The position numbers and the translations under genes were made by a program. A DNA stretch of 41,483 nt. It comes from an uncultured Bacteroidia bacterium (GTDB lineage: Bacteria; Bacteroidota; Bacteroidia; Bacteroidales; UBA932). The notes under the pieces were generated by a model. That model worked only from the letters and a program-made list of their open reading frames with translations, had not been told where the DNA came from and did not search any database. Where the stretch lies: positions 1 through 41,483 of the forward strand of contig CACYZM010000026.1 in assembly GCA_902778855.1 (NCBI GenBank), in the 5' to 3' direction. Below are positions 11,808 through 32,911 of the stretch, in pieces; the stretch's first letter is position 1, and each line of letters starts with the position of its first letter.

Positions 11808-11955
11808 GTCCCCAGGCAAAACGGGCAAGGTCCCCAGGCAAAACGGGCAAGGTCTCATTTGAGGCCCGACACCTTGCCCGCCCGAATGGCCTCCCACGGC
11901 TATCTGGCGCAGATTTCCCGGGCAAGGTCCGCTATCTGAAATGAGACCTTGCCCG
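11808..11955. repeat. Structured repeat family B, copy B4 (arm CGGGCAAGGT)
   Basis: Two tandem 22-bp units (11808-11829, 11830-11851) end in the arm CGGGCAAGGT. Hairpin 1 pairs arm 11844-11853 with ACCTTGCCCG 11871-11880. After a ~38-nt spacer, hairpin 2 pairs the same arm (11919-11928) with 11946-11955. In addition, 11844-11860 is a perfect 17-bp inverted repeat of 11939-11955. The layout is that of the copies at 24.7, 32.3 and 32.8 kb, but with a different arm. The 100 bp that follow (11956-12060) hold several GTCA/GTCAGCC repeats and no gene. Confidence 0.75.
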
Positions 11956-12060
11956 CAGAGGCCCCAGCCTGTCACGCTCCAAGTCTGTCACTCGCCATCT
12001 GTCAGCCACCCGCCGCGCCGTCAGCCGGCACACAGTCAGCCGACGGCTTCTCTGACTTAC

Positions 12061-12205
12061 CCGAAAATCACGGAGCGCGGTCTACCCATTCCCAGGGCCC
12101 TCGCTGGCCCATACTCACGCGCTGCGAGGCCAAATGGGCGCACGGAGCGCGGCAATAGTCGTCTCGTGCTCTATTTCATCGATTCAGGCGCTCTGTGATT
12201 TTCGG
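12061..12205. repeat. Nested inverted repeat element E
   Basis: An 18-bp outer inverted repeat (12061-12078 with 12188-12205, one G-T pair) encloses a second stem: CCCATT 12085-12090 with AATGGG 12133-12138, and GGCCCTCGC 12096-12104 with GCGAGGCC 12124-12131. The arm CACGGAGCGCGG occurs twice in direct orientation (12069-12080 and 12141-12152). No coding potential is evident. Confidence 0.65.
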
Positions 12206-12223
12206 TTTGCCGTATCTCTGGCG

Positions 12224-12480
12224 AAGCCCTGTCGGGAAGGGACAATTCCTCCGCTCAGGCTGTCGAAAAAGGGAGCGGCATCGGGAGCTTGACGGCGAAC
12301 TCCTCCTTATCCGGGCCGCAAGGGCCCGGAACGTTCGTCGAACAAAGCGCCGTCATGGCCCGAGAGGGCCGCAGGTAATCCCTGCGGCCCTCTCGCTACG
12401 GCCACCGCTCCCTGCACAGGCCCACCCACGTCCCTTTTTCGCCAATTCGCTCCGGAATTGTCCCTTCCCTCCTTGGGCTT
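12224..12480. repeat. Structured repeat family A, copy A1 (~257 bp multi-stem element)
   Basis: The outer stem AAGGGACAATTCC (12237-12249) pairs perfectly with 12454-12466. A second long stem pairs CGAAAAAGGGAGCGG (12264-12278) with CCGCTCCC (12405-12412) and CCCTTTTTCG (12432-12441). GACGGCG (12291-12297) can pair with CGCCGTC (~12349-12355). Two terminal hairpins follow: TCCGGGCC-GCAA-GG(G)CCCGGA (12310-12330) and a perfect 15-bp stem 12361-12375/12381-12395. The copy at 39364-39634 keeps the fold with changed stem bases. Confidence 0.8.
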
Positions 12481-12604
12481 ACCGAAATCGAAAGGGGCAG
12501 GAATTTCGGCTCACCTGCAATTATCCGTGGCTGACTATAATTAGTGTAGTTTGAAGATTTGATTGAGAATGGTTATCTTGCAGGTTGTAAACACCTGTTT
12601 TTTC

Positions 12605-13036
12605 ATGAATCAAGATTGTAAACCCGTTCTGCACTTCACTTTTGGAATGATGCTTGCCTCCGTTGTAGCATTCCTTATGCATCCTCTGTTATGGATACAG
12701 GCAGGGCCCTATTTTGATTGGAGTTTCCTTTGGGTGGGCGTTTTGTACATTTTTGTTTATGGCGCCGTTGGCATGTTTATCCGGTGGAAATGGTGGAGGT
12801 TTACCTGGAAGAAACAAGCAATTATCGTGCTCTTTATTGTCAATACAATCTTGGCTATCGCTCTTCTAATTTACCTTTATTGGCCTCGGTATATTGAGAT
12901 TGACGGAGTCCGGGAGCGATGGTATATGGATGGATTGACAGGTATGATGATTTTGTCAACCAGTGCCGTGGCAGCCCTTTTTTCTGCCATACCGATATCC
13001 CTTTGTTGCTACTGGTTTAAACGAAATCGGGAATAA
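12605..13036 (+). CDS. Small multi-pass membrane protein, unknown
   Basis: 143 aa from ATG 12605 (MNQDCKPVLHF); the frame is open back to TTG 12563 and ATG 12569. Four hydrophobic helices are visible: MMLASVVAFLMHPLLW, FLWVGVLYIFVYGAVGMFI, AIIVLFIVNTILAIALLIYL and MMILSTSAVAALFSAIPISL. A short basic C-terminus (WFKRNRE) ends it. I recognise no family. It is clearly more AT-rich than the genes before 11.8 kb and sits alone after three structured repeats, which suggests acquired DNA. Confidence 0.55.
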   Translation: MNQDCKPVLHFTFGMMLASVVAFLMHPLLWIQAGPYFDWSFLWVGVLYIFVYGAVGMFIRWKWWRFTWKKQAIIVLFIVNTILAIALLIYLYWPRYIEIDGVRERWYMDGLTGMMILSTSAVAALFSAIPISLCCYWFKRNRE

Positions 13037-13141
13037 CAGGCGATGTCCATCTCTGTCGCGCAATCGTGGGTTTCTACCCAAAGATTGTGCTTGGGTTTTG
13101 TGACCTTTTACTAGGTAACCTCCTTCTTAGTTAAAAATTAT

Positions 13142-13184
13142 GGGGTAATTGAAGTTAAGTGATTTATTATCAATCACTTACCCC
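13142..13184. terminator. Hairpin between convergent genes, possible terminator
   Basis: GGGGTAA (13142-13148), after a 10-nt bulge, and GTGATT pair with AATCACTTACCCC (13172-13184), giving a 13-bp stem with a 7-nt loop. On the minus strand it is followed by ATAATTTTTAAC. It lies between two convergent AT-rich genes; the rest of 13037-13286 shows nothing recognisable. Confidence 0.4.
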
Positions 13185-13286
13185 TGTATTCAAAAACTTG
13201 GGATAGTCGCAAGGGAAGTTTGAGGCAGGCTGAGATGCCACCAACTAACTGTATACAATTACAACTACTACCCCCAGACAGATTAG

Positions 13287-14504
13287 TTATTCTATCCAAT
13301 CTGATAATGACACTTTCTCCTTTGTTTTGTCATAAGGGAGGAACACTGTTTCGCCTGTGCACCAGGATGTCCGGAGGTCGGCAACAACCCCATCGTCATA
13401 GAGATAAAGACTGAATATTTTCGGCATAGATTCAAAATGCCAATACCCACCCCAATGGCCTCTGTTAACTTGGATAAGATACCTGAGTTCAGTTAATCTG
13501 TCCTCATTAATCTTTGTCCATTTAGTATAGTCTAAAACAGCATCCTCATCAGACTCACAGACACCTCCAACATATAGTGAAAGGAGCCTGTCAATTTCTG
13601 ATGTTATGTATACAATCTCCTTATCAGAATCAAAACTTGGAACATAAGCAAAACGGTCTGATGCTTTCATCATATAATCCCATTTGAGAGTCATATCCCA
13701 AAGAGCATCAAAAGGGTATTCATTGAAGGTCCCAGAATACCTCCTGACCTCTATGCTGCCAGGCAATGAACAAATAGCACAACTGTCAGGAATACTTTTA
13801 TTGTATTCAATGAAAATTCTTTTAACGGCCTGATTATCAGTTGAAAAAGACCTTAATTGTACGGACCAATTCTTCCACTCCTTGAGAAAGGCTTTGAAAT
13901 TCTTCTCAGTTAAGGAATGATACTTCTTGGTAAATGATGGCTTGATAGGAGTCGTTATTACCAGTGTGTCCGGATGTTCTGATTCCCATTGTTTATACTC
14001 CTCATCCATTTCTTCTCCATATGTTTCCTTCCAATTGGAAACACCCCAATTGCCATCTATGAACTTATAATGGTATTCTTCCCAATCAGCAATATTACGA
14101 GCAAGGTTAAAGAAAGGTATGGTATGGAAGAATGCGAAAGAGGAATATGTTAGAAATGTTGACTTTTTCCCTGTTTTTTCAAAGACATCAGGAATAGATT
14201 CTTCCAGTTTATCTTCTGATACAATAAACTTAACCCCATTTATGATAACCTGTCCAAATAGACTGTCCTTAACCATCCAGGTGCTAGGATGCTCTGGGCT
14301 AGCAATAATGGAATTTCTAGTGGTATTGGTATATATGAACATCTCTGGAGTATTAGACTTGGCCTTCTCTTTATCTGCAATTTCTTCGAGCCAAGATCTC
14401 ACATTGTTATCAGCAATCTCGACCTTGTCAACTCTCATTATGCGGAAGTTCAAGCAAACAAAGACAAGCATAGCAATCACAATAGTAATTACTATGGCAA
14501 TCAA
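13287..14504 (-). CDS. Membrane-anchored hypothetical protein with a disrupted 5' end
   Basis: About 405 aa. A hydrophobic helix (LIAIVITIVIAMLVFVCLNF) at the N-terminus is followed by a large, probably extracytoplasmic domain rich in Trp, Tyr and charged residues, with no motif I know. The frame is open upstream to TTG 14606, but that stretch overlaps the end of an ISAon1 fragment and looks like IS-derived reading. There is no ATG before the membrane helix; TTG 14504 is one possible start, and ATG 14471 would cut the helix. The native 5' end may have been lost when the IS fragment arrived. AT-rich, unlike the flanking operons. Confidence 0.45.
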   Translation of the reverse strand: MIAIVITIVIAMLVFVCLNFRIMRVDKVEIADNNVRSWLEEIADKEKAKSNTPEMFIYTNTTRNSIIASPEHPSTWMVKDSLFGQVIINGVKFIVSEDKLEESIPDVFEKTGKKSTFLTYSSFAFFHTIPFFNLARNIADWEEYHYKFIDGNWGVSNWKETYGEEMDEEYKQWESEHPDTLVITTPIKPSFTKKYHSLTEKNFKAFLKEWKNWSVQLRSFSTDNQAVKRIFIEYNKSIPDSCAICSLPGSIEVRRYSGTFNEYPFDALWDMTLKWDYMMKASDRFAYVPSFDSDKEIVYITSEIDRLLSLYVGGVCESDEDAVLDYTKWTKINEDRLTELRYLIQVNRGHWGGYWHFESMPKIFSLYLYDDGVVADLRTSWCTGETVFLPYDKTKEKVSLSDWIE

Positions 14505-14584
14505 ACAATATGACTTCTTTGATTTACTATTCCTCCTCCTTCTCCAGGAGGACTTCCTCCAAAAATGGGAAATATTTGGGAAGT

Positions 14585-14978
14585 AAAAAGACAAAAAAAG
14601 CCGCAAACTCTGCGGAATAGCGGGTGCCGGAAGCGACCAGCGGATACATGTTCAGGATGACGTTCTTGCCGTCCGGAGTAAGCCACCTCCGACGGCGGAT
14701 GTGCAGTTCCACCCGGCGCTCCGTATCGGAAAGTCCGTGAGGATTGTCGGCTCGGTAAACCCATTGGGCCTGAGTTCCTGCATATCCTCGGTGCGATTGT
14801 CCCGCTCATCAAGGTGAATAAGGAGTTCGCCCGTATACACGATATCCTTCTGGCTCTCTCTAGAATCGAGAGATTGGCTCTCCACCCAAACCAGATCGAA
14901 GAAGTCCAACAGACCTTCCGGAAGAAAAAAGCTGATGAAGTGCTTGTAAAGCTCGAGTTGTGTGGTATCCTTATCCAT
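14585..14978 (-). pseudogene. ISAon1-family N-terminal ORF remnant, frameshifted
   Basis: From ATG 14978 the frame reads MDKDTTQLELYKHFISFFLP, EGLLDFFDLVWVESQ and FTEPTILTDFPIR, matching the 'ISAon1 family transposase N-terminal region' proteins. Near 14715-14735 a one-base shift is needed to continue into VELHIRRRRWLTPDGKN and LVASGTRYSAEFAAFF, the conserved second half of the same protein. The catalytic ORF of the element is absent; the sequence runs directly into the neighbouring gene at ~14585. It is a dead fragment, not an active element. Confidence 0.8.
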
Positions 14979-15082
14979 ATCCGCAAAGGTACAATCTTTC
15001 ATTGACAGTTCCTCGAAGGATATACTTTTAACTCATCCTAAACACGGAACTTTGCAGATGACCAGGAATTTCAGGAGTTTTG

Positions 15083-16144
15083 TCATAATGCCGGCAGCAG
15101 ATAGTCCCAGATGAGGTTCAGTTCCTGACGCATATTGGGGATATCTGCCGTCGTAACGATGACGGCATCCTGCTCGGGAAGAATCAATATATATTGGCCG
15201 TTGGCTCCATCAGCACGGAAGGCGCCATGGCGGCAGCGCCACATCTGATAGCCATAGCCTTGTTGCCAATCATTCTGTTCGGGATCAAACATGGCGTAGA
15301 CCGGGTGGGACGGGTCCTGTCTGATCTCGGCGACTTGCCGTTCATTGACTCCGGCGTTTACCGACGGAACCTGGGCGGCAGACATTTCTTTTACCCATTC
15401 TGCAGGGATTACCTGCTGGCCGCGGAACTTGCCCCCGTTCAGCAGGCAGAGACCCATCCGGGCCAGGTCTTCCGTTTTCAAATACAAACCCCAGCCGCCC
15501 GTATTGATACCGGCAGGACTCTCCTGCCAATAGGGCTTTTCGATACCCAGCGGATGCCACAGACGCGACTCCAGATAGTCGACCACCTTCTGCCCGGTGA
15601 CTTTCTGGACAGCCGCAGACAGCACATAGGTACCCAGACTGTTATAGCAGTAGCAAGTGCCCGGTTCATACGCAATCGGCCACTCCATGAATGTCTTGAT
15701 CCAGTCTCCCTGACCGGAGCGGGTGGCGGATGTCGGATCTTTTCCATGTCCGGAATTCATGGTCAACAAGTGACGGATGCAGATTCTTTCCAGTGTGTCA
15801 GACACATGGGCGGGCAGGCTTTCCGGGAAGAGATCCACGATCCGGTCGTCCAGGGCAAGCAATCCTTCGGAAATGGCAAACCCCACAGCCGTAGCCGTAA
15901 AGGTCTTGGACACAGAATTCAGAATATGCGCCGTATCAGGCACGAAGCTTTTTTCCATAAGAACTTTGCCGTGCTGCAAGACCATGATACTGTGCAACTG
16001 TTCGCTGCTGTCGGCAACAGCTTGAAGGTAGGCGGCAAAGGCGTTTTCCATTTTTGCCGAAGCCTTTCCGCGAGGAAGCGGAGCGTCCGGATGCGAACAA
16101 GCGGCCGAAAAAAAGAGGACGGCCAGCAGAAGGATGCGATTCAT
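15083..16144 (-). CDS. Class-C beta-lactamase-like serine hydrolase lipoprotein
   Basis: 353 aa from ATG 16144, 2 nt after the stop of the M13 peptidase. The lipobox is SAAC (C16). The beta-lactamase/D-Ala-D-Ala-peptidase fold has the catalytic SVSK (S77, K80), Y167-N168-S169 as YxN/YNS, and a C-terminal HGAFRADG in place of the KTG-like box. Such proteins are estyerase, peptidase or lactamase relatives acting outside the inner membrane; the substrate cannot be told. It is the last gene of the five-gene minus-strand operon, and the lipobox places it on the periplasmic or outer-membrane side. Confidence 0.88.
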   Translation of the reverse strand: MNRILLLAVLFFSAACSHPDAPLPRGKASAKMENAFAAYLQAVADSSEQLHSIMVLQHGKVLMEKSFVPDTAHILNSVSKTFTATAVGFAISEGLLALDDRIVDLFPESLPAHVSDTLERICIRHLLTMNSGHGKDPTSATRSGQGDWIKTFMEWPIAYEPGTCYCYNSLGTYVLSAAVQKVTGQKVVDYLESRLWHPLGIEKPYWQESPAGINTGGWGLYLKTEDLARMGLCLLNGGKFRGQQVIPAEWVKEMSAAQVPSVNAGVNERQVAEIRQDPSHPVYAMFDPEQNDWQQGYGYQMWRCRHGAFRADGANGQYILILPEQDAVIVTTADIPNMRQELNLIWDYLLPAL

Positions 16145-16146
16145 AA

Positions 16147-17982
16147 TTACCAAATTTTAGTGCGGCGTTCGGGAGGGAGGTAGAGGAGGTTGTTGCGGTC
16201 GACGTCGTAGAGGTCGTACCAGAGGTCGGTGTTCATGACGACGCCGTTGACGCGAAGACGGGCGTGGGAGTGGACATCGGTTTTCTGCAAGACGCTGAAC
16301 TTATCGTCCCCATACTGAACGGACCAGATGTGGGCGTAGGATTCGTAGAACTTGCGAAGCTGGTTCTTGAACTCTTCGCCGCCGAAGCCTTGTTCATGGA
16401 GACGGGCCTGGTAGGCGTCGAGGACGGTGAGGAAACCTCCGAGATCGGCGATGTTTTCCGTCAGGGTGCGGGTTCCGTCGCCATAGATGCCGCTGCGGCC
16501 GAGGACGCCGGGTTCCATTTCCAGATGACTGTAGCAGTTGATGAGATTCTGGGTGCGTTCCTCGAAGGCCATCCGGTCGGCGACGGTCCACCAGTCGAGT
16601 TCGTGCCCATATTTATCGTATTTCGAGCCCTGTGAATCGAATCCGTGGGTGAGTTCATGACCGATCATGGCGAACGCGGCATAGAAGCAGGCTTCGCTCA
16701 TCCCCTCTTCCGGGGTGGCGGGCGGCATCATCAGGGCCGGATAGATGACCACGCAGTTGAAAGCGGGCATGTACATGGCGTTGCACAGCGTGAGGTCGGA
16801 AGATAAGACCGCACCGTTGCTGTCCATAAAGACACTGGCGATCTGAAAAGAGAAGACATCATTGGTGCCGGCCAATGTCTTAATCAGGAGAGCGATGTTG
16901 CGGTTGTTCCGGTGGACGGCTTCCACCAGGGTTTCACAATTGGCATACGAGGAAACGCAGTCTTCATACCACTGGTCCGGGTAGGCCACATAGAGACCGC
17001 AATGGGCCAGTTTGTCCAAGGCATTGGTCTTGGTGGTCTGGCTCAGCCAATCCACTTTCTCGATGCGATGCGCCAGACTCGCCTGAATCTCCCGGGTAAT
17101 GCCCACTAACTTCTCCTTGAATTCTTCGGCAAGGAACTGCTTGGCGAAATGGTAGGAAATCGTGTAACCCAAGGAAGCCCGTGCCGTGCTCCGGACTCTC
17201 GAAAGACTGGCCGTCCCCATTTTTTCGGGACTCACGTACACCTCATATCGATCCCAGGCTTCGTCGATCATCTGACAAAGCTGTTCCAGCGTCTTGTTTT
17301 CAAACACCGACCAGAAACTCAGCGTAAGGGAGTTCAAATAGACTTCGGACGGATCCAACCCGATTCCCCGGGCAATCAGTTCCGGGGCCGATTCGCCGGC
17401 TTTGGTCTGTACAATCGGCACCAGTGTTCCCGGAGCAGGCGGATTGGGCATCGGCATATCAGGAAACACGATCGGCGGAGTCAAGGTAGCCACCAGGTGA
17501 TCTTTGTCCCAAGTCATGTTCAATGCGGGCATGATGGCGGCACCCCAGGGATCCACGCCGTCGGCAATGAGCCGGCCCAAGGTCAGGTAGGCTTCTTCCT
17601 TGGTCTGAGGCCGAGCTATCTTAGCCTTCTGGGCATCGATATAGGCCTGAGATGCCTCGGGATTCGTGTGGATCGCATCGAGCAGTTCGAAGAAATGCCC
17701 AATGTCGGGAACCGTTTTCTTCAGGGTTTCGATGCGTTCCTCCATGGCGGGATCCGCATCGTAATAGCCTCCGATAATCTTGTCGGGGGCGGGAATGGGA
17801 TGATTCTTCAGCCAGGTGCCGTTGCAGTAGTCGAAAAAGCTGTCACCGGGATCGACCGATAAATCTTTGCGTGCCGTGTAGTCCGCAGGATACGGGAGCG
17901 GGTCCGTCGCATCGAAGGGTGAGACACAGGCGCTGAGCCCAGCGGCAACAATGACAAGCGTCAGGAGGGAAAGGCGTTTCAT
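16147..17982 (-). CDS. M13-family (neprilysin/PepO-like) zinc metallopeptidase lipoprotein
   Basis: 611 aa, close to the usual ~650-680 aa of bacterial M13 enzymes. The lipobox is LSAC (C19). The N-terminal half carries the family start SVDPGDSFFDYCNGTWLKN. The zinc site is HELTH in AMIGHELTHGFD (near residue 440), with the third ligand in ENIADLGG (~508). The C-terminus has the conserved HARLRVNGVVMN segment, but the usual final 'CRVW' is replaced by RRTKIW. Members cleave small peptides in the periplasm or at the surface. It is the fourth gene of the operon, 15 nt after the YARHG gene. Confidence 0.93.
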   Translation of the reverse strand: MKRLSLLTLVIVAAGLSACVSPFDATDPLPYPADYTARKDLSVDPGDSFFDYCNGTWLKNHPIPAPDKIIGGYYDADPAMEERIETLKKTVPDIGHFFELLDAIHTNPEASQAYIDAQKAKIARPQTKEEAYLTLGRLIADGVDPWGAAIMPALNMTWDKDHLVATLTPPIVFPDMPMPNPPAPGTLVPIVQTKAGESAPELIARGIGLDPSEVYLNSLTLSFWSVFENKTLEQLCQMIDEAWDRYEVYVSPEKMGTASLSRVRSTARASLGYTISYHFAKQFLAEEFKEKLVGITREIQASLAHRIEKVDWLSQTTKTNALDKLAHCGLYVAYPDQWYEDCVSSYANCETLVEAVHRNNRNIALLIKTLAGTNDVFSFQIASVFMDSNGAVLSSDLTLCNAMYMPAFNCVVIYPALMMPPATPEEGMSEACFYAAFAMIGHELTHGFDSQGSKYDKYGHELDWWTVADRMAFEERTQNLINCYSHLEMEPGVLGRSGIYGDGTRTLTENIADLGGFLTVLDAYQARLHEQGFGGEEFKNQLRKFYESYAHIWSVQYGDDKFSVLQKTDVHSHARLRVNGVVMNTDLWYDLYDVDRNNLLYLPPERRTKIW

Positions 17983-17997
17983 CGGGGAAAGGGTTTC

Positions 17998-24210: not shown

Positions 24211-24212
24211 AC

Positions 24213-24620: not shown

Positions 24621-24835
24621 TCCGGCGAGGATCCGAAGCCTTGATTCATTCTCCGGGGCTTGATCTCATTCTTTGGCAACGAAAGGGACGGTTTATCCAT
24701 CTCGTCCCTTTCGCTGCCAATAATGCGGGAGTTTGGGCTTTTTCTGGCAACGAAAGGGATCAAGCGGCGCCCTCATGGATTTCGCTGCCACCTCAACGCC
24801 GCAATCCATAGACTGCCTCTGATCCGGCGGGGATC
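24618..24835. repeat. Structured repeat family B, copy B1 (arm TGGCAACGAAAGGGA)
   Basis: Hairpin 1 pairs TGGCAACGAAAGGGACG (24674-24690) with 24703-24719, one mismatch. Hairpin 2 uses the identical arm (24745-24759) and pairs with TTTCGCTGCCA (24780-24790). The loop-2 sequence GCGGCG (24764-24769) is complementary to CGCCGC just downstream (24797-24802), so a pseudoknot is possible. The unit is bracketed by near-identical palindromes TGATCCGGCGAGGATC (24618-24633) and TGATCCGGCGGGGATC (24820-24835). No ORF is supported. Confidence 0.75.
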
Positions 24836-26045: not shown

Positions 26046-26081
26046 TCAGATATAAATAGTCAAATACCTGAAATTCTTGAC

Positions 26082-26089
26082 TATATTTG
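26082..26089 (+). promoter_or_regulatory. -7 element (TATATTTG)
   Basis: TATATTTG, 14 bp upstream of ATG 26104. It supports that ATG over the longer frame from 26077. Confidence 0.55.
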
Positions 26090-26103
26090 CAAAAAATACA
26101 GAT

Positions 26104-26478
26104 ATGGGTAAGTTTACTTTCATAAAGAACACGGATGACATTGAAACCTCTGATTATTTGAAGGAATTTGCCGTCCCGTCACCTGACAAAGACTATATCT
26201 TGGTTATGAAATACTATAGATATAGACAATTATCAGAAGGTGATTATCAAACAAGGGTTTTTCCAAACTTCTATTCCGAACTCTTTTTATACATTAGGAA
26301 AAAAGACGAGAATACTTTTTCTGTTTTCAAATACCTTGGGAATGTATGGGTTCATCGTCATATTGAAAACAGTATTCTGTATGATGACATTATGAATCTT
26401 GCAGAAGTTTCTACCGATGTTCAAAACGAATGGAGTTATTTGGTAGGCTTCGTAAAACAAGAAAACGCACCCGAATAG
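26104..26478 (+). CDS. Small hypothetical protein
   Basis: 124 aa from ATG 26104 (MGKFTFIKNTDDIETSDYLK), acidic and aromatic-rich, without signal peptide or membrane helix (YILVMKYYRYRQLSEGDYQ, FSVFKYLGNVWVHRHIEN). I do not recognise it. It is AT-rich like the divergent gene at 25314-26045, with which it shares a 58-bp intergenic region; the pair may have arrived together. Confidence 0.6.
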   Translation: MGKFTFIKNTDDIETSDYLKEFAVPSPDKDYILVMKYYRYRQLSEGDYQTRVFPNFYSELFLYIRKKDENTFSVFKYLGNVWVHRHIENSILYDDIMNLAEVSTDVQNEWSYLVGFVKQENAPE

Positions 26479-26538
26479 AATGCGTTTCTTCATTTAGTGC
26501 AAACTAGTATATCGTTCCCTAAAAAATCAAATCATATC

Positions 26539-27342
26539 ATGAGAAAACAGTTTTTCTATTTTGCGACAATCGTGGCCTTTGCGCTGACCGGGTGCGGCGG
26601 ATGCTCGGATTTTTCGGCGATGTTTGAGGGCAAACCGGTTACGAAAGATTTCGAAGTGGCCGGGGATTATACCAGCCTCGAGGTCTCCCACGCGTTCGAT
26701 GTGACCGTGAGCGACGCGGTCGACAAAGTGCAGGTCACTGCGGGCGAAAAGATCATGCCGAATGTCCAGGTCGAGTTGGTGGGAAATACGCTCCGGATCT
26801 ATCTCGAACCGCAGAAACCCACGCTTCACGCTTCGATGAAAGTACTCCTTCCCTATAATGCCGCACTGACGGACATCGATTTTTCGGGTGCTTCGGATTT
26901 CCATTCCAGATTCGGTCTGGAAGGCGCGAAAGTAACCGTGTCGCTCTCCGGCGCCTCCGACTGCGAATGTGACATCCGTGCGGAAGAAATCGAAATCAGC
27001 GGCTCCGGCGCTGCCGACTATGAGGGCAAAGTGACGGCCGCTTGCCTCAAACTCGATATGAGCGGCGATTCCGACGCCGAGATCAAAGGCGAAGTCGGCA
27101 AGCTCATCCTCGATCTGTCCGGCGCCAGCGACCTCGAAAGCCCCGTCGTCAACAAGCGCTACGGCCTGGTCTGCAATAGCTGCGAAGGATCCCTGAGCGG
27201 TGCCAGCGACGCCTACCTCCACTGCGACGGCACCATCAGCCTCAGCCTCTCCGGCTCCAGCGACCTCTACTACACCGGCGACGCCACCACCAGCACCTGC
27301 TCCACCTCCGGCGGCTCAAGCATCAAACACGAGAGGCTGTAG
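26539..27342 (+). CDS. GIN-domain (DUF2807) lipoprotein
   Basis: 267 aa from ATG 26539. The lipobox is ALTGC (C18). The remainder is the DUF2807 'putative auto-transporter adhesin, head GIN' domain: KDFEVAGDYTSLEVSHAFDV at the start, then seven spaced turns of the form SGASD (DFSGASDFHS, SLSGASDCEC, SGSGAADYEG, DMSGDSDAEI, DLSGASDLES, SLSGASDAYL, SLSGSSDLYY). This fits a right-handed beta-helix. Such lipoproteins sit in the Bacteroidota envelope; the partner is unknown. GC content returns to that of the core genes here. Confidence 0.9.
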   Translation: MRKQFFYFATIVAFALTGCGGCSDFSAMFEGKPVTKDFEVAGDYTSLEVSHAFDVTVSDAVDKVQVTAGEKIMPNVQVELVGNTLRIYLEPQKPTLHASMKVLLPYNAALTDIDFSGASDFHSRFGLEGAKVTVSLSGASDCECDIRAEEIEISGSGAADYEGKVTAACLKLDMSGDSDAEIKGEVGKLILDLSGASDLESPVVNKRYGLVCNSCEGSLSGASDAYLHCDGTISLSLSGSSDLYYTGDATTSTCSTSGGSSIKHERL

Positions 27343-27438
27343 CTACTACGCTGGCAGCCCATTCAGTGGCGCAACCAGCGGATCCGCCAGCGTGTCTTCA
27401 ATTTACCAACGCCAGAAACGATAGACCCGTTGCTGGAC

Positions 27439-27472
27439 GAATACACCCCCCGCTACAGCAGGGGGTGTATTC
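27439..27472. repeat. Hairpin repeat family C, copy C1
   Basis: GAATACACCCCC (27439-27450) pairs perfectly with GGGGGTGTATTC (27461-27472). The right half, from CTACAGC to the end of the stem, is shared exactly with the copy at 32489-32508. It may act as a terminator for the GIN lipoprotein, but no T run follows. The rest of 27343-27622 shows no gene. Confidence 0.55.
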
Positions 27473-27584
27473 AATTAAGTTTCAGCAAACGCCGGTTATC
27501 GATCATTAACTCCAAAATTGCTTTTTCGTCGGTTCGCTATGGAATGTTTTGCGTTCCTTTGCAAGCATTGAAGAACCGTTATTA

Positions 27585-27616
27585 TTTGGAAATTGTTTAC
27601 TAATTAGTTAACTTTG
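27585..27616 (+). promoter_or_regulatory. Promoter of the toxin-antitoxin pair (TTTG -20 bp- TAACTTTG)
   Basis: TTTG (27585-27588) and TAACTTTG (27609-27616) are 20 bp apart. The start point would fall at or near ATG 27623, giving an almost leaderless toxin message. Confidence 0.65.
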
Positions 27617-27622
27617 TGCTGA

Positions 27623-27985
27623 ATGAAGAAGGAATTCGTGAGACAGGTGGTCGTATTTGAGAATCACTTTAAGGAATTTAGAAAAACGCTGAACAGGGAA
27701 ACGCTCAAGAAACTATATCAGGTGCTAACCTTGATTATGATGGTGGAAGAAGTTCCAGCTCAGTTTCTGAGAGCCATCGTGGGAAGAAAAGGACTCTTTG
27801 AGATACGAGTAGAAAACGGAAACAACATCTATCGGGTATTCTGCTGCTTTGATGAAGACAAACTTGTAATCCTGTTCAATGGTTTCCAAAAGAAGACGCA
27901 AAAGACACCCGCGGAGCAATTGGATAAAGCAGAAGCACTGATGAAGAAGTATTATGACCAGAAAAGCAACCGAACCAATGGATAA
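27623..27985 (+). CDS. higB: HigB/RelE-superfamily toxin (Gp49-like)
   Basis: 120 aa. The sequence FENHFKEFRKTLNRETLKKL, then PAQFLRAIVGRKGLFEIRVE and NNIYRVFCCFDEDKLVILFN, then GFQKKTQKTPAEQLDKAEAL, matches the phage-derived Gp49-like/HigB group of type II toxins, which cleave ribosome-bound mRNA. The basic pair and the 'FQKKTQKTP' box are intact, so it is probably functional. Toxin precedes antitoxin, as in higBA, with an 8-nt overlap. Confidence 0.9.
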   Translation: MKKEFVRQVVVFENHFKEFRKTLNRETLKKLYQVLTLIMMVEEVPAQFLRAIVGRKGLFEIRVENGNNIYRVFCCFDEDKLVILFNGFQKKTQKTPAEQLDKAEALMKKYYDQKSNRTNG

Positions 27986-28286
27986 GAAAGACCTCAAAAA
28001 GATGAATCTGACCCCTATCGAAGACCTCATCGAAGAGGACTTCGGGGCCGTGGGGACACCGGAACGTGACCAGTTCGAGATGGAGTGTGATGTCTTCGTG
28101 ATCGGAGAGCAGCTAAAGGACGAGCGCCTTAAAGCCGGTCTCACGCAGGAACAGCTGGCAGAGAAGATCGGCACCAAGAAGAGTTTCATTTCCAGAGTGG
28201 AAAGAGGCCATGCCGACATTCAGCTCTCCACCCTCGTCAAGCTATTTCGAGGGCTAGGCCGTCAGGTAAGCATTCGGGTTCTTTAA
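27978..28286 (+). CDS. higA: HigA-like XRE-family antitoxin
   Basis: 102 aa from ATG 27978 (MDKKDLKKMN); ATG 27954 is an alternative that would overlap the toxin more. The N-terminal toxin-contact region (TPERDQFEMECDVFVIGEQL) is followed by a Cro/C1 helix-turn-helix: LKDERLKAGLTQEQLAEKIG, TKKSFISRVERGHADIQLST. It neutralises the upstream toxin and should repress the shared promoter. The following ~30 bp to the convergent DUF4434 gene hold nothing notable. Confidence 0.9.
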   Translation: MDKKDLKKMNLTPIEDLIEEDFGAVGTPERDQFEMECDVFVIGEQLKDERLKAGLTQEQLAEKIGTKKSFISRVERGHADIQLSTLVKLFRGLGRQVSIRVL

Positions 28287-28318
28287 TCCGATGCCAGCGA
28301 AGAAAGGCTGTAGCCGCC

Positions 28319-29437
28319 TCACATTCCGAAATACTCCCGATAGCGCGCATACAGATGTCCGGCCTGGAGGTAGGCGGACTGGGGGCTCATGAAGTGGGAG
28401 AATTCGAAGGTGATGGCTTTGTCGTAGCCGCAGCGGGCGGCGGCTTCGAGTTTGAGACGGAGTTTGTCGAATTTGATGGGGAGGAAGCGGATGGGCATGT
28501 CGCGGTCGAAGGTCTCGGCGTTGGTCCAGCACTGCATCCCGTAGCGGTCCGCCAGCTTTTTGTTGACGGAGAAAAAGGCGTCCAGTTCGTCATAGTCGAT
28601 GTGGCCGTCCTGGAAGGCGCAGGCGTCCACGTATTCGTGGATGCCGTCGAAGATCTCGTTCCACTCGCGTTCGTGCTGCTCCACCGACACGGCCTGCGCC
28701 CGGGTCAGGGAGCCGCTCGCGGCATCGACGGCTTTCTTGCCGTCGATCCACGGCGAGATGAACGTGGGCAGGCCGCCCGACACCTCCTTGCACTGCCGCC
28801 CCATCGTGCGGAAGCTCTCGATGGCGCCACGCGTGGCGCGGGAGATCTCTCCGGAGATGTACCAGCCGCCAAAGCTCTCGTACTTGCTGCCGTATCGCTC
28901 CCACACCTCGTCGATCACGAATTTGTTCGCCTCCACCTCATAGCTCATGTCGCCGGTGTCCCAGTAGCGGCCGGAGTCATAGAGGCCCAGCATGAACTTC
29001 ATCCCGTATTTCTGCGCCAGGCGGCAGAACATGTCGATCAGGTCGACCGACGGCAGATAGCATCCCTTCTTCAGGAGATACGGCGATGGATACGTGATGA
29101 ATTTCCGGTATCCGCAGCGGATGTCGATCATCGTGTCGATGCCGATCGCTTTCATATAGCGGAAATCCCGGTCCCACTCCCGCTCGCCCCAGTTCTGGTG
29201 CGGTATGTCGTGGGAAATCTCATCGAGGAACGTCCCCGTGATGGGGAGCGCCCTCCCCTTGCCCGGCTCGACGAGCAGCCGGCTCCTCACGGACGGATCC
29301 GCCTCAATGCCCCACCGGTCACCACCGTGCTCCGCCTCCGGCCTGACGCGCCGCTCCGGTCTGCACCCCGCCGCCACCAGCGGCGCGGCCGCCGCCGCCA
29401 ACGCACCTTTCTTCAGGAAATCTCTTCGGTTTGCCAT
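28319..29437 (-). CDS. Tat-exported DUF4434-type putative glycosidase-like protein
   Basis: 372 aa from ATG 29437. The twin-arginine signal NRRDFLKKGALAAAAAPLVAAGC ends in a possible lipobox Cys. The mature part matches DUF4434 (TIM-barrel related to glycoside hydrolases): ALPITGTFLDEISHDIPHQ, REWDRDFRYMKAIGIDTMI, KFMLGLYDSGRYW, FGGWYISGEISRAT and FEFSHFMSPQS. No reaction is established for DUF4434. Its promoter (TAAATTTG, 29467-29474) is divergent to the DUF418 gene. Confidence 0.85.
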   Translation of the reverse strand: MANRRDFLKKGALAAAAAPLVAAGCRPERRVRPEAEHGGDRWGIEADPSVRSRLLVEPGKGRALPITGTFLDEISHDIPHQNWGEREWDRDFRYMKAIGIDTMIDIRCGYRKFITYPSPYLLKKGCYLPSVDLIDMFCRLAQKYGMKFMLGLYDSGRYWDTGDMSYEVEANKFVIDEVWERYGSKYESFGGWYISGEISRATRGAIESFRTMGRQCKEVSGGLPTFISPWIDGKKAVDAASGSLTRAQAVSVEQHEREWNEIFDGIHEYVDACAFQDGHIDYDELDAFFSVNKKLADRYGMQCWTNAETFDRDMPIRFLPIKFDKLRLKLEAAARCGYDKAITFEFSHFMSPQSAYLQAGHLYARYREYFGM

Positions 29438-29466
29438 AAATCTCTTGGTTGTTCTGGAATCTGTAC

Positions 29467-29474
29467 CAAATTTA
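29467..29474 (-). promoter_or_regulatory. -7 element of the DUF4434 gene (TAAATTTG)
   Basis: The minus strand reads TAAATTTG, a full TAnnTTTG match, 29 bp before ATG 29437. Confidence 0.6.
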
Positions 29475-29508
29475 CTGAAATTAATCGTAACTTGCACTCC
29501 GTTGCACG

Positions 29509-30675
29509 ATGTACCAGTCTAAAGGCATAGCTAACAGCCGGATCGAGGTCGCGGACGCCCTGCGGGGATTGGCCGTGGCGGGGATCATTCTGTATCATTC
29601 GGTGGAGCATTTCAACGTGGGTTATCCCGATGCGGTCACGCACACGCTGCCGTGCGACGGGACGATGTTCAACTTGTGCACGGTGCTGTTTTCGGGCAAG
29701 ATGTACGGGATCTTCGCGCTGCTGTTCGGTCTGAGCTTTTTCATCATGCGCGACAACCAGGCGCAGAAGGGCAAGGATTTCTCCGCGCGGTTTTTCTGGC
29801 GGATGGTGCTGCTGCTCGGGTTCGGCATCCTCAATCTGGTATTCTACAACGGCGACATCCTGACTTTCTATGCCCTGTTGGGATTGCTGATGATTCCGGC
29901 GGGATATCTGAGCACGCCCGTCCTCTGGGCCGTTTCAATTTTCCTTCTTGCGCAACCGATCGAGATATACAGCCTGATCTCCGGCTGGAAGCCCGACCTC
30001 TCGGCGCTGGGCGGCTATTATCAGAAGATGGGACCCGCCCTGGAAGAAGGCAGCTTTTGGGAGGCGGCCGCGGCCAGCCTGCGCTACGGCTTCCGCTGCT
30101 CCTGGCTCTGGTTCCTGGCCCACGGCCGGATCACCCAGACCGTCGGCCTGTTCTTCCTCGGGATTCTCGTCGGCCGGCACCGGCTGTTGTACAACGAAGG
30201 GAAAAACCTGAAGACCTGGCGCGTCGTGCTGGCTTTCTCGCTGGCCGCGGTCGTGGCCGGCAGCGTGCTCGGCGCCGCCGAACACGGCAGCGTCCACTTC
30301 GGCCCGCTCGACGCCCTGCTCCACCCGCTCTACAATCTGGCCATCCTTCTGCTGATCGTCTCCGCCGTCGTCCTGCTCTGGTACGGCTTCGCCGGCTTCC
30401 GCCGCAGCCTCACCCACATCTGCTTCTTCGGCCGGATGTCGCTCACCAACTACCTGCTCTCCTCCCTGATTGGCACTTTCCTCTTCTACGGCTGGGGCCT
30501 CGGCCTCTACCGGGAACTCGGCGTCACCTGGTCCTTCCTCGTCGGCATCGCCATCGTCACCTTCCAAATCCTCCTCCTCCGCCTCTGGTCCCGCCACCAC
30601 CCCCGCGGCCCCCTGGAAACCCTCTGGCGAAAACTGACGTGGATTCAGATAAAGCCTCCGAAAGCCGAAAGATGA
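29509..30675 (+). CDS. DUF418 (YeiB-like) multi-pass membrane protein
   Basis: 388 aa with about ten membrane helices. The start RIEVADALRGLAVAGIILYH and SGKMYGIFALLFGLSFFIM, and the C-terminal FGRMSLTNYLLSSLIGTFLFYGWGLGLY, are hallmarks of DUF418/YeiB proteins, relatives of membrane acyltransferases with unknown substrate. The stop overlaps the next start as ATGA (30672-30675). TAACTTGC at ~29488 is a weak -7 candidate. Confidence 0.9.
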   Translation: MYQSKGIANSRIEVADALRGLAVAGIILYHSVEHFNVGYPDAVTHTLPCDGTMFNLCTVLFSGKMYGIFALLFGLSFFIMRDNQAQKGKDFSARFFWRMVLLLGFGILNLVFYNGDILTFYALLGLLMIPAGYLSTPVLWAVSIFLLAQPIEIYSLISGWKPDLSALGGYYQKMGPALEEGSFWEAAAASLRYGFRCSWLWFLAHGRITQTVGLFFLGILVGRHRLLYNEGKNLKTWRVVLAFSLAAVVAGSVLGAAEHGSVHFGPLDALLHPLYNLAILLLIVSAVVLLWYGFAGFRRSLTHICFFGRMSLTNYLLSSLIGTFLFYGWGLGLYRELGVTWSFLVGIAIVTFQILLLRLWSRHHPRGPLETLWRKLTWIQIKPPKAER

Positions 30676-31820
30676 AAGCCCGTTTCATTCTGACCCTCGC
30701 CTTTTTCCTGTTGACATTCGGTTATGTCGTCTGGCACTTATGGCGGATTACACCCGCAGGTTGGCCGGGGAAACTGGGCGTGGCCGGGCTTTTTGTGCTG
30801 TGGTTCTTGGCATTCGTGGCGGGAATTGGGTTCAGCGAGCGGTTTTCTTTGCGGACGGCAACCGTCCTGTATGAAGCGGGATCGCCGTGGCTGATCGCCT
30901 TCCTCTATCTGTTCCTGCTTTTCGTCGTCGCCGACGTTGCGTCGCTTTGCCATTTGATTCCCAAGACGCTGCTGAGAGACAGCGCGGCCGGCCTCGCTTT
31001 CGCCGCGGCGTTGGTCACCCTCCTTCTGGTGGTCGGGAACGCGCATTACAAGCACAAGTATCGAGAAGAGCTGACGATCGAGACGGAGAAGCCGCTGGCG
31101 CGGCCGCTGACAATCGTCCTGGCCAGCGACCTGCACATCGGCTATCACAACCGCCGGGCCGAATTGGCCCGCTGGGTCGATCTGATCAATGCCGAGCAGC
31201 CCGACCTGGTGCTATTCGGCGGCGACATCATCGACCGGAGCATCCGCGCGGTCGAAGAAGGCGGCTTCGCCCCCGAATTCCGGCGCATCGCCGCGCCGGC
31301 CTACGCCGTCCCGGGCAACCACGAATATTACAGCGACCTCGCCCGCGCCAAGCAATTCTACGCCGCTGCCGGCATCACGATGCTGCAGGACGAATGCCTT
31401 GACGTGGCCGAAATCCGCCTCATCGGCCGCGACGACCGAACGAACGCCAGCCGAAAGCCCCTGGCGGAGCTGGCGGAACTGGGGGATCTGGCAGATCTGG
31501 CAGAGCCGACGAAGCCGACAGAGCCGACAGAGCCAACGAAGCCGACGGAGCCCACAGCCTTCACCCTCCTCCTCGACCATCAGCCCTATCATCTCGAAGA
31601 AGCCGAAGAGGCCGGCATCGACTTCCAGTTCAGCGGCCACACCCACCGCGGCCAAATCTGGCCCGCGTCCTGGGTCACCGACGCCCTCTACGAAAAATCC
31701 TGGGGCCGCCACACCCGTGGCCAAACCCAATACTACATCTCCTCCGGCCTCGGCCTCTGGGGCCCCAAAGTCCGCCTCGGCTCCCGCTCAGAATATCTGG
31801 TCGTACATTTGGAGAATTAG
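30672..31820 (+). CDS. Membrane-anchored calcineurin-like metallophosphoesterase with an in-frame repeat insert
   Basis: 382 aa from ATG 30672, translationally coupled to the DUF418 gene. Four helices fill residues 1-125. The YaeI/YkuE-like phosphoesterase domain has D153-x-H155 (ASDLHIG), G184-D185 (LFGGDIID), G215-N-H-E218 and GHTH 322-325, so all metal ligands are present. YaeI-type enzymes remove the pyrophosphate from UDP-2,3-diacylglucosamine or act on related lipid substrates; which applies here is unknown. Residues ~263-295 are a low-complexity insert (ELGDLADLAEPTKPTEPTEP...) encoded by a degenerate tandem repeat between two domain strands. Confidence 0.9.
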   Translation: MKARFILTLAFFLLTFGYVVWHLWRITPAGWPGKLGVAGLFVLWFLAFVAGIGFSERFSLRTATVLYEAGSPWLIAFLYLFLLFVVADVASLCHLIPKTLLRDSAAGLAFAAALVTLLLVVGNAHYKHKYREELTIETEKPLARPLTIVLASDLHIGYHNRRAELARWVDLINAEQPDLVLFGGDIIDRSIRAVEEGGFAPEFRRIAAPAYAVPGNHEYYSDLARAKQFYAAAGITMLQDECLDVAEIRLIGRDDRTNASRKPLAELAELGDLADLAEPTKPTEPTEPTKPTEPTAFTLLLDHQPYHLEEAEEAGIDFQFSGHTHRGQIWPASWVTDALYEKSWGRHTRGQTQYYISSGLGLWGPKVRLGSRSEYLVVHLEN

Positions 31821-31838
31821 AATCTATTCGTACCTTTG
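31808..31838 (+). promoter_or_regulatory. Promoter of the candidate small RNA (TTTG -19 bp- TACCTTTG)
   Basis: TTTG (31808-31811) and TACCTTTG (31831-31838) are 19 bp apart, a textbook Bacteroidota promoter overlapping the 3' end of the phosphoesterase gene. No ORF follows, only the structured sequence and a terminator. Confidence 0.7.
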
Positions 31839-31844
31839 CATCAG

Positions 31845-31982
31845 GAAACAAACCGCGATCCGGATGAGGTAATTCGATCCGTGCGAAGTCCCCGCCCCGA
31901 GCCTCACCACCCACCTGGTAACCATCCGCCGCGTATTCCTGGGGCAGTTCTAAAGGATGACCGAGCTTGGTCATCCTTTTTT
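31845..31982 (+). ncRNA. Candidate structured small RNA (~135 nt)
   Basis: It is bounded by a strong promoter (31808-31838) and a strong terminator (31952-31982), with no ORF. A long-range stem closes most of it: CGCG 31854-31857 and CGGATG 31861-31866 pair with CATCCG 31923-31928 and CGCG 31930-31933, leaving small bulges; AGGT 31867-31870 can extend it with ACCT 31913-31916. The interior is GC-rich (GTCCCCGCCCCGAGCC). The rod-like shape could suit a 6S-type RNA, but I see no feature that proves this and assign no family. Confidence 0.5.
31952..31982 (+). terminator. Rho-independent terminator
   Basis: AAAGGATGACC (31952-31962) pairs perfectly with GGTCATCCTTT (31969-31979) around GAGCTT and is followed by T's. 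It ends the candidate small RNA. Confidence 0.85.
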
Positions 31983-32200
31983 ATTACTATGCCTCCAACG
32001 CAGTAATGCAGTATTGAACTTTCTCGTGGGTTCGACGTTTTACCCCTACCGTCATCCTTACAGTTCCAATACCCGGACAGTTATAGCTCATAATAAGCAT
32101 TTTTTCAAACGGTCTTTGATTGGCTCTCGCCTTAGTCCCGAATGGCAATCTCTTCCGGGGTATTTCCTTGAGGTATGTTGATAATCTCCGTCACGTTTTA

Positions 32201-32224
32201 ATCTTTGTCCACTATGACAAAGAT
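32201..32224. other. Perfect 9-bp inverted repeat containing promoter-like boxes
   Basis: ATCTTTGTC (32201-32209), a 6-nt loop, then GACAAAGAT (32216-32224). The minus strand reads TATCTTTG at 32218-32225. No good gene starts nearby. The region 31983-32271 otherwise shows no supported feature. Confidence 0.35.
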
Positions 32225-32271
32225 AATGTGCCAACTTCACTTCCCTCCGACAAAAAAGCAATTTATCTAGC

Positions 32272-32418
32272 CTTGATCCCATTTCCTGTCAGCGACGCGC
32301 ATGGTTTATCTGTCTCATGACCGTCGATGACAGAAATGTGGGGTTTGGGGCTATTTCCCGGCAGCGACGCGCATAAAGCGGCGCCGCCATTTGCTTCGCT
32401 GACGACCCAGCGCCGCAT
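32272..32418. repeat. Structured repeat family B, copy B2 (arm GTCAGCGACGCGCAT)
   Basis: Hairpin 1 pairs CTGTCAGCGACGCGCATG (32286-32303) with 32316-32333 (15 of 18 positions). Hairpin 2 uses nearly the same arm (GGCAGCGACGCGCAT, 32360-32374) and pairs with TCGCTGAC (32396-32403). Loop 1 (GGTTTATC), the spacer (ATGTGGGGTTTGGGGC...) and loop 2 (AAGCGGCGCC) match copy B1 at 24.7 kb, although the arms do not. GCGGCG in loop 2 can again pair downstream with CGCCGC (~32411-32416). Confidence 0.75.
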
Positions 32419-32474
32419 CTGTCAGAGTGTCCGCAAGGAGTACGTCTCAGAGGGGATTAATTCTCGGACTGGCT

Positions 32475-32508
32475 GAAGACACCACCCTCTACAGCAGGGG
32501 GTGTATTC
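32475..32508. repeat. Hairpin repeat family C, copy C2
   Basis: GAAGACACCACCCT (32475-32488) pairs imperfectly with AGGGGGTGTATTC (32496-32508). The segment from CTACAGC (32489) to the end is identical to copy C1 at 27.45 kb. The left half begins with GAAGACAC, a motif repeated at 32548, 32945 and 32973. Confidence 0.5.
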
Positions 32509-32539
32509 AGGGGAGCTTAGCAAGATATTGCCTGATTCG

Positions 32540-32565
32540 GGTCAGTTGAAGACACGCCGGCGGAA
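32540..32565. repeat. Direct repeat, left copy (GGTCAGTTGAAGACAC...)
   Basis: This 26-bp sequence recurs at 32937-32962 with three differences. The two copies bracket the 39-aa membrane peptide gene and repeat B3, so the ~400 bp between them may behave as one unit. Confidence 0.55.
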
Positions 32566-32606
32566 ATGGCAGAAAAATAAAAACCCGAAGGCAAAGCTCT
32601 TCCGAT

Positions 32607-32726
32607 TTATGCGTTTTTATCCCCTTCTTTCTCGTCCGAATGGATCAGGGCGAGGACGAAGCTGACGATCATGGCGACGAGGCCGATGCCGAGGAGGATG
32701 AGGAGGATGGTGAAGAAGGTTTGCAT
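32607..32726 (-). CDS. 39-aa single-span membrane peptide
   Basis: ATG 32726 opens MQTFFTILLILLGIGLVAMI followed by VSFVLALIHSDEKEGDKNA: one hydrophobic helix of ~25 residues, then a short charged tail. A full TATCTTTG box lies 12 bp upstream on the same strand. Downstream, on the minus strand, an imperfect hairpin (GAAG...CTTC) is followed by GGTTTTTATTTTT, a likely terminator. Promoter, helix and terminator make this a credible small gene. The role could be a small membrane regulator or a type I toxin-like peptide; neither can be shown. Confidence 0.6.
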   Translation of the reverse strand: MQTFFTILLILLGIGLVAMIVSFVLALIHSDEKEGDKNA

Positions 32727-32737
32727 AATCCAATAGA

Positions 32738-32745
32738 CAAAGATA
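32738..32745 (-). promoter_or_regulatory. -7 element of the 39-aa peptide gene (TATCTTTG)
   Basis: The minus strand reads TATCTTTG, 12 bp before ATG 32726. Confidence 0.65.
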
Positions 32746-32794
32746 CGATAATATTTCTCCCAGAGCAATCTGCCGGAGTAATCTACCCAGTAGT

Positions 32795-32911
32795 TTTGTC
32801 GCGACAGGATCAGGAAACCGTAGGCAATCCTGTGGCGGCGGCATTTGGGGCGAAAAAGCCGAAAATCCTACCACGACAGGACTTCCAGAGGCGCCCCCAA
32901 TCCTGTCGTGG
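32795..32911. repeat. Structured repeat family B, copy B3 (arm CGACAGGA)
   Basis: Hairpin 1 pairs CGCGACAGGAT (32800-32810) with ATCCTGTGGCG (32827-32837), 10 of 11. Hairpin 2 pairs CCACGACAGGA (32871-32881) perfectly with TCCTGTCGTGG (32901-32911). The shared core CGACAGGA appears in both hairpins. The spacer (GCATTTGGGGCGAAAAAG) resembles that of B1 and B2, and loop 2 contains GAGGCGCCC. Confidence 0.65.

What the first reader, a model, noticed from the sequence alone, without database searches (positions are those of the whole stretch)
11808..32911. Repeat family B: two hairpins made from the same arm, with the arm exchanged between copies
Four intergenic elements (11808-11955, 24663-24802, 32272-32418, 32795-32911) share one layout: arm-loop-arm', a ~25-40-nt spacer, then the same arm-loop-arm' again. 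Within a copy the arms of both hairpins are the same or nearly so. Between copies they differ almost completely (CGGGCAAGGT; TGGCAACGAAAGGGA; GTCAGCGACGCGCAT; CGACAGGA). Loop 1, spacer and loop 2 are clearly conserved between B1 and B2 and partly in B3. So four arm segments change together while the frame around them stays. Simple decay of a transposable repeat would not give this. Possible explanations: gene conversion between the two hairpins, a paired binding site whose specificity has diversified with its protein, or an RNA whose arms define a target.
Basis: partly seen in the sequence, partly recalled or inferred. Interest (0 to 1): 0.85.

Follow-up and report, generated by a model that had tools for sequence, protein, structure and literature searches.

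The report
Transposase-matched double hairpins with swapped arms
These repeated double hairpins in a gut-type bacterium appear to be small mobile DNA elements, each built to fit one of a set of related DNA-cutting enzymes, and a few amino acids of the enzyme change in step with the hairpin arms, which makes enzyme-to-DNA matching directly testable.

The parts
11844..11955 (+). B1, family alpha doublet: A1 11844-11860, A2 11871-11880, A3 11919-11929, A4 11940-11955; an extra partial arm lies just upstream (11822-11831)
   Evidence: sequence; copies at C10, C17 and two in C6; spacing 75 nt (63 in the C6 copies); no cognate RAYT in this genome (best 26%), but RAYTs beside alpha arms in five congeners
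24661..24803 (+). B2, family beta doublet, frame class: A1 24674-24689, loop1 24690-24703, A2 24704-24719, A3 24745-24760, loop2 24761-24774, A4 24775-24790
   Evidence: frame model hit 124.5 bits (B2 is one of the 20 rows of the model); alignment A7; RAYT at C13:43556-44488 between two beta doublets
32274..32417 (+). B3, family gamma doublet (variant tip), frame class: A1 32287-32302, loop1 32303-32316, A2 32317-32332 (decayed), A3 32359-32374, loop2 32375-32388, A4 32389-32404
   Evidence: frame model hit 122.6 bits (B3 is one of the 20 rows of the model); alignment A7; nearest arm is that of the RAYT at C19:40518-41474 (GCGACGCAGA against GCGACGCGCAT here), which lies between two gamma doublets
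32792..32918 (+). B4, family delta doublet with CTTTTG...CAAAAG-like terminal inverted repeat and arm CGCGACAGGAT
   Evidence: alignment A2; weak hit of the frame model at 32783-32927, 29.3 bits; RAYT at C1:145023-146033 between two delta doublets

Best explanation
B1-B4 are non-autonomous, REPIN-like mobile units: pairs of hairpins with one arm, recognised by one particular RAYT, a single-strand-DNA Y1/HUH transposase. SHOWN: RAYT genes lie between doublets with the same arm, and dispersed copies carry the arm, or a close variant, of a RAYT present in the genome or in congeners. The four arms covary, and two RAYT residues track arm bases. INFERRED: the RAYT binds the folded hairpin by its arm (residue 69 reading the basal dinucleotide, residue 157 the tip), cuts through its catalytic tyrosine and mobilises the doublet in trans. 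When a RAYT changes specificity, its flanking doublets are recoded at all arms, and new copies made from them carry the new arm; the loops are kept for another step such as cleavage or dimer assembly. The two arm distances, 71-74 and 82-84 nt, suggest that the two sites must face the same side of the helix, as if two protomers meet on the doublet.
Against: No transposition, cleavage or binding was observed. 60 of 162 flanks have no doublet at the threshold. No exact empty site was found. The two doublets of a RAYT locus are mostly in direct, not inverted, orientation: 9 of the 11 frame-class loci oriented on both sides, with beta and zeta inverted; canonical RAYTs have inverted REPs. That H1 and H2 are inverted copies rests on the frame class alone (G.T:A.C 27:9 in H1, 14:29 in H2); over all 65 loci the two hairpins show no such opposition (13 opposite, 16 same sign). 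GT[AG]G is not conserved at the foot (20 of 236, 11.2 expected); copy numbers are low. B3's arm tip differs from that of the C19 RAYT, so its exact partner is unsure. Loop likeness is inflated because the frame class was picked by its loops. One covariation measure, pair types, is only slightly high (60 against 54.3, 23 of 500 shuffles). The code was found by scanning 311 columns against 12 arm positions and is post hoc: by z, 69-4 and 69-5 rank first, but 200-8 outranks the residue-157 pairs. C8 occurs without D/E in 6 loci and T8 without H in 11; independent contrasts are few (69: 3; D/E157: 4; H157: 1 informative of 3). One of four held-out predictions at 157 failed, and the sister clade does not follow the rule. 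Phasing over ten hand-picked families is weak (Rayleigh p about 0.02; a 10.0-nt period fits better than 10.5).
Confidence: 0.85

Rival explanations
1. Concerted evolution of palindromes by template switching or gene conversion alone: the arms copy one another during replication and drift freely; the RAYT neighbourhood is incidental.
For: Arms within an element are near-identical while loops are not; quasipalindrome correction by template switching is an established mutational process (recalled, not looked up).
Against: Arms across the two doublets of a RAYT locus, with the gene between them, are as alike (0.84) as within one doublet (0.82; 19 loci). Dispersed frame-class copies carry resident-RAYT arms or close variants. 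Arm bases track RAYT residues. Drift would not predict this.
Confidence: 0.05
2. A structured RNA (riboswitch, terminator pair, or guide whose arms define a target) made from intergenic transcripts.
For: Strong paired covariation would be expected of an RNA too; the two doublets of a RAYT locus are mostly in direct orientation (9 of 11), so one transcript could carry both.
Against: No Rfam match in the window at gathering thresholds. In the frame class H1 and H2 favour G.T wobbles on opposite strands, which one transcript would not need; over all loci the wobble strand shows no clear bias relative to the gene. Hairpin and nested pairings are equally supported. Transcripts were not examined.
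Confidence: 0.05
3. Ends and deletion derivatives (MITEs) of an ordinary IS200/IS605 insertion sequence.
Confidence: 0.04

Closest known systems
REPIN-RAYT / REPtron systems (RAYTs: PMC2817692; REPINs: PMC3116915; orthogroups and 'orthoswitch': PMC3686654)
   Same: Y1/HUH transposase gene flanked by cognate hairpins; hairpin doublets as the dispersed unit; hairpins that co-diversify with the RAYT; orthologous RAYTs with different REP stems; orphan REPs where the RAYT is gone. P. [quoted passage not shown]
   Different: No GT[AG]G foot; loops kept while arms change; a whole doublet on each side of the gene, mostly in direct orientation; two discrete arm spacings; few copies; proteins about 310-340 aa and unseen by Pfam and NCBIfam; residue-to-base tracking.
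TnpA-Y1 subclass 1.2 of Quentin et al. 2018 (PMC6006769)
   Same: Y motif Y---Q--HH is matched (Y107, Q111, H114, H115); found in Bacteroidetes; low copy number.
   Different: Subclass 1.2 has median 148 aa, HuH motif DH[IV]H and, in that paper's table, no REP; the clade here has 311-337 aa, THxH, and clear hairpin partners.
TnpA-Y1 subclasses 2.4 and 2.6 (PMC6006769)
   Same: RAYTs of Bacteroidetes (2.6 mostly, 2.4 partly) with long or 'atypical' hairpins.
   Different: Y motifs YIxNNP and YIH[QN]NP; clade I here has YVNRQ-LHH. The four PF01797-positive proteins of this genome over the cut-off (C2, C9, C1a, C31; YLYNNP or YVYNNP) are nearer to that kind.

Membership tests
REPIN-RAYT (REPtron) | Y1/HUH transposase with HxH and one catalytic Tyr in a RAYT fold | tested here: met
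REPIN-RAYT (REPtron) | gene flanked by cognate hairpins, copies of which occur elsewhere in the genome | tested here: met
REPIN-RAYT (REPtron) | the two flanking units are in inverted orientation | tested here: not met
   9 of 11 frame-class loci with both flanks oriented are direct, 2 inverted; beta (C13) also inverted
REPIN-RAYT (REPtron) | dispersed unit is an inverted hairpin doublet | tested here: inconclusive
   opposite mismatch asymmetry of H1 and H2 in the frame class, p 2.6e-4 without regard to relatedness; not seen over all 65 loci; hairpin and nested pairing equally supported
REPIN-RAYT (REPtron) | conserved GT[AG]G (or CGTC) tetranucleotide at the hairpin foot | tested here: not met
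   GT[AG]G 20 of 236 feet (11.2 expected); CGTC 3 of 236 (12.6 expected)
REPIN-RAYT (REPtron) | high copy number (tens to hundreds) | tested here: not met
   15 strong frame-class places in 2.41 Mb, six of them RAYT flanks, a lower bound as 150 of 1176 candidates were scored; 5 alpha and 6 delta places found
REPIN-RAYT (REPtron) | RAYT processes its own REP in vitro | not testable with these tools
   needs purified protein
TnpA-Y1 subclass 1.2 | Y motif Y---Q--HH | tested here: met
   Y107, H114, H115 invariant in 59 rows; Q111 invariant in the four own proteins; motif definition from PMC6006769
TnpA-Y1 subclass 1.2 | about 148 aa, HuH motif DH[IV]H, no associated hairpins | tested here: not met
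   311-337 aa with THxH and flanking doublets; definition from the table seen
IS200/IS605 insertion sequence | short TnpA matched by the family models | tested here: not met
   no Y1_Tnp or IS200 hit for the four clade-I proteins at E up to 1; 311-337 aa
IS200/IS605 insertion sequence | transposition of the gene-bearing unit | not tested
   no insertion polymorphism of the gene-bearing unit was examined

The most novel reading that the evidence does not exclude
This annotation-dark RAYT clade reads its hairpins through a small, changeable residue-to-base code. Residue 69 in the helix after the HxH strand sets the basal dinucleotide of the arm (Tyr GA, Leu TC, Asn AG). Residue 157 sets the tip base (Lys/Arg G, Asp/Glu C, His T). 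Evolution has switched the specificity of a single-strand-DNA transposase many times by changing a few residues while recoding all the arms of its doublets, and the doublet is held at whole-helical-turn spacing because two protomers must meet on one face of the DNA.
Probability: 0.43. Interest if true: 0.87.

Novelty: new variant of a known kind. Interest (0 to 1): 0.74.

Why it matters
How a HUH single-strand nuclease chooses its hairpin, and how that choice evolves, is known from few RAYT/REP pairs (an E. coli crystal structure and the three pairs of the SELEX study, PMC8266576). Here 59 natural enzyme-hairpin pairs share one geometry and differ in arm, with 34 distinct arm tips and two residues that track the arm. 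That turns RAYT specificity into a testable code, gives partners to a HUH group that current family models miss, and offers starting points for re-aimable HUH enzymes. It also shows how one genome can keep many RAYT-hairpin pairs of different arms: 14 RAYT-like genes in 2.41 Mb.

Tried and rejected
Rfam on the window at gathering thresholds: no match. Pfam and NCBIfam on clade-I RAYTs: no transposase hit. Sequence search of the PDB with the 59-row profile: none at E up to 1; only the fold comparison found the relative. Foldseek against the PDB was not run; the second-look aligner VIA was used instead, and a family missing from its list is not excluded.

Empty-site test: beyond the B1 neighbour gene no alpha doublet was seen in six relatives (L222-L227; only 198 nt were held for L222), but the sequence beyond the gene differs as well, so this is weak and not counted as proof of insertion. 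The B2 site search gave matches to the element and to single flanks, but no relative spanning both flanks.

Helical phasing over ten hand-picked families is suggestive only. In the spacing list, 63 (L125), 69 (L094 upstream, a CG-rich repeat array) and 70 (L098 downstream, low complexity) are probably spurious.

Rows dropped: of 168 flanks (84 loci), 6 were under 250 nt and left out; of 102 doublets, 84 had equal arm distances, a readable centre and enough flank and were oriented; the covariation alignment holds 18 of the 37 frame-class elements, chosen by me to span the arm types, plus B2 and B3. Single-linkage arm classes merged all but the zeta group; inside the two classes together (205 same-class pairs, near-copies included) arms agree at 0.67 and loops at 0.77.

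Held-out check of the code (loci outside the 59, nearest training protein 55-95% identical, score 24 or more, readable register; duplicates of one protein counted once): residue 69 right in 7 of 7 (L107, L085, L138, L245, L140, L134, L124); residue 157 right in 3 of 4 with a predictive residue (L107, L085, L134 right, L124 wrong). C1b and L111 agree when their register is read by eye, but the script's register failed for them. GA is the majority class (47 of 59), so the residue-69 check is weak. In the sister clade (37-42% identical) readable rows gave residue 69 0 of 1 and residue 157 1 of 4 (L155 right; L151, L150, L159 wrong). Thirty-one of the new loci were identical to training proteins and test nothing; L084/L233, L102, L133 and others had no doublet above the threshold.
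Full report
OBSERVATION. The four elements are real. They belong to families spread over the 2.41-Mb genome of which the window is contig C26: alpha (B1) at C10, C17 and twice in C6; beta (B2) at C17 and twice in C13; gamma (B3) at C3, C19 and, as a variant, C4; delta (B4) at C17, C18, C5 and twice in C1. Each family has its own arm. B2 and B3 share the same loops (TTTATCTATCTC and AAGCGGCGCC types) and geometry; B1 does not, and B4 only weakly.

THE PROTEIN. A search for Y1 transposases found five PF01797 matches in this genome, four over the cut-off. In four of these loci hairpins of one sequence recur on both sides of the gene, and in the fifth on one side. The gene at C54 lies between two doublets with arm TCCGGTCCA, the same layout as B1-B4. 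Using that protein as query brought out further RAYT-like genes, 14 in all over. One at C13 (43.6 kb) lies between the beta doublets and one at C1 (145.6 kb) between the delta doublets. Hairpin scans of the flanks placed gamma doublets around the C19 gene and a fifth arm, zeta (GGACGCTCGATCCAT), around the second C13 gene. The alpha RAYT is absent here (best match 26%), but five congeners carry a 304-314 aa RAYT, 66-76% identical among themselves, beside alpha arms. B1 is therefore probably an orphan whose RAYT was lost, or lies in the part of the genome not assembled.

THE DNA PARTNERS. A scan of 84,980 species genomes gave 80 loci, the best of 108 confirmed, all titled Bacteroidales or Bacteroidia. 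Among 80 genomes around ours, 19 of the 40 of our genus and none of the 40 others had a match at E 1e-40. With our four that makes 84 loci and 162 usable flanks. A geometry score found doublets (25 or more) in 102 of 162 flanks, against 0 of 162 Markov copies. Among these 102, the distance between equivalent arms is 71-74 nt in 79, 82-84 in 20, and 63, 69 and 70 once each; none lies at 75-81. On a maximum-likelihood RAYT tree of 71 rows at least three changes between the two spacing classes are forced, and one locus has 73 on one side and 83 on the other.

ORIENTATION. Of 11 frame-class loci with both flanks oriented, 9 have their two doublets in direct and 2 in inverted orientation; the beta pair at C13 is also inverted. 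Canonical RAYTs are flanked by inverted REPs (PMC2817692). In the frame class H1 favours G.T and H2 A.C mismatches (27:9 and 14:29, one element per locus, p 2.6e-4 without regard to relatedness), as if the two hairpins were inverted copies, as in a REPIN; over all 65 loci this is not seen (13 opposite, 16 same sign).

FRAME AND ARMS. Of 84 oriented elements, 37 from 26 loci bear the B2/B3 frame, picked by their loops. Within an element the four arms agree at 0.79-0.86 and the two loops at 0.28. Between the zeta group and the rest, arms agree at 0.38, loops at 0.64, outer flanks at 0.44 and spacer at 0.40; loops exceed arms in 119 of 120 pairs. In an alignment of 20 such elements with one gapped column, the two-hairpin structure forms 85.0% of cells with 143 double changes (shuffled 53.5), and the nested alternative does as well, 85.8% and 141: all four arm segments change together. 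A covariance model found 15 strong places in our genome, and a sixteenth partial one (C71) that I did not read; by eye the 15 carry beta, gamma or zeta arms, two as gamma variants (B3 and C4); six are the flanks of the three RAYTs, and one lacks the second hairpin.

THE CODE. RAYTs over 80% identical have alike arms; at 60-70% identity arm likeness runs from 0.12 to 0.85. Scanning 311 protein columns against arm likeness with overall identity removed, column 69 stood out (partial r 0.52, next 0.28). Over 59 loci of the 70-74 spacing class: Y (46) or F (1) with GA at arm positions 4-5, L (6) with TC, N (6) with AG, without exception after shifting one locus (L126) whose centre was found one base off. 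Residue 157, picked for the highest excess mutual information (position 8), goes K or R with G in 18 of 21, D or E with C in 10 of 10, H with T in 12 of 12; of 14 columns with enough charged residues none comes near. C8 also occurs without D/E in 6 loci, T8 without H in 11, G8 without K/R in 1. Relatedness inflates such counts: independent pairs give K/R157-G8 5.5 to 0 of 7 (median p 0.03), Y/F69-GA 3 to 0, N69-AG 2 to 0, D/E157-C8 3.1 to 0 of 4, H157-T8 1 to 0 of 3. The chemistry (Lys/Arg with G, Asp/Glu with C) is that of direct base contacts (general knowledge). Held-out loci of the main clade: residue 69 right in 7 of 7, residue 157 in 3 of 4; in the sister clade of about 40% identity 0 of 1 and 1 of 4.

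KNOWN WORK. From passages, RAYTs flanked by two inverted REPs and coevolving with them are established (PMC2817692), as are REPINs (PMC3116915) and orthologous RAYTs with different REP stems (PMC3686654; passages and section 6). PMC6006769 (passages and sections 17 and 18) lists a subclass 1.2 with the same Y---Q--HH motif but 148 aa and no REP. PMC8266576 (abstract and the first part of the discussion) shows that two groups of TnpA-REP read their REPs differently. PMC3733652 was seen in passages. Seven paper searches showed me no description of these Bacteroidales doublets or of such a residue-to-base code; they list titles and abstract starts, and papers outside that library were not searched.

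VERDICT. Works like a REPIN-RAYT system; differs from the canonical kind in lacking GT[AG]G, in mostly direct flanking doublets, in low copy number, in its conserved loops and in its longer, unannotated protein. Hence a new variant of a known kind.

Noticed in passing
window 27439-27473, 32474-32508, 32537-32565, 32934-32990: Repeats with TGAAGACAC / GTGTATTCA arms, like the hairpins around the RAYT-like gene at C35 (L066 2967-3004 and 5026-5081): another REP-like family beside B3 and B4.
   Followed up: partly
window 12261-12481 and 39413-39634: A longer repeat of about 220-260 nt (CGCCAATTCGCTCCGGAATTG core); parts of the first copy match places on C17, C35, C21, C10, C6, C3 and C43 of the genome. 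Unrelated to the doublets; function unknown.
   Followed up: no
L070 (C6) 2860-2942 and about 7520-7660: A further doublet family, arm CCATCCTCAC, spacing 51 nt, sits directly beside two alpha copies; no RAYT assigned.
   Followed up: partly
L065 (C37) 5416-5956: Tandem array of TCGGTGAGCA hairpins (period about 102 nt) near another RAYT-like gene.
   Followed up: no
L038 (C31): The RAYT-like gene is followed by an apparent low-molecular-weight phosphotyrosine phosphatase gene (identified by eye, no search), and the second hairpin unit lies beyond it; the hairpin sits inside a larger nested palindrome of about 110 nt.
   Followed up: no
L094 upstream flank: Tandem array of CAGCGCGCCGCAATCTTTATCAC-like units next to a zeta-type doublet.
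   Followed up: no
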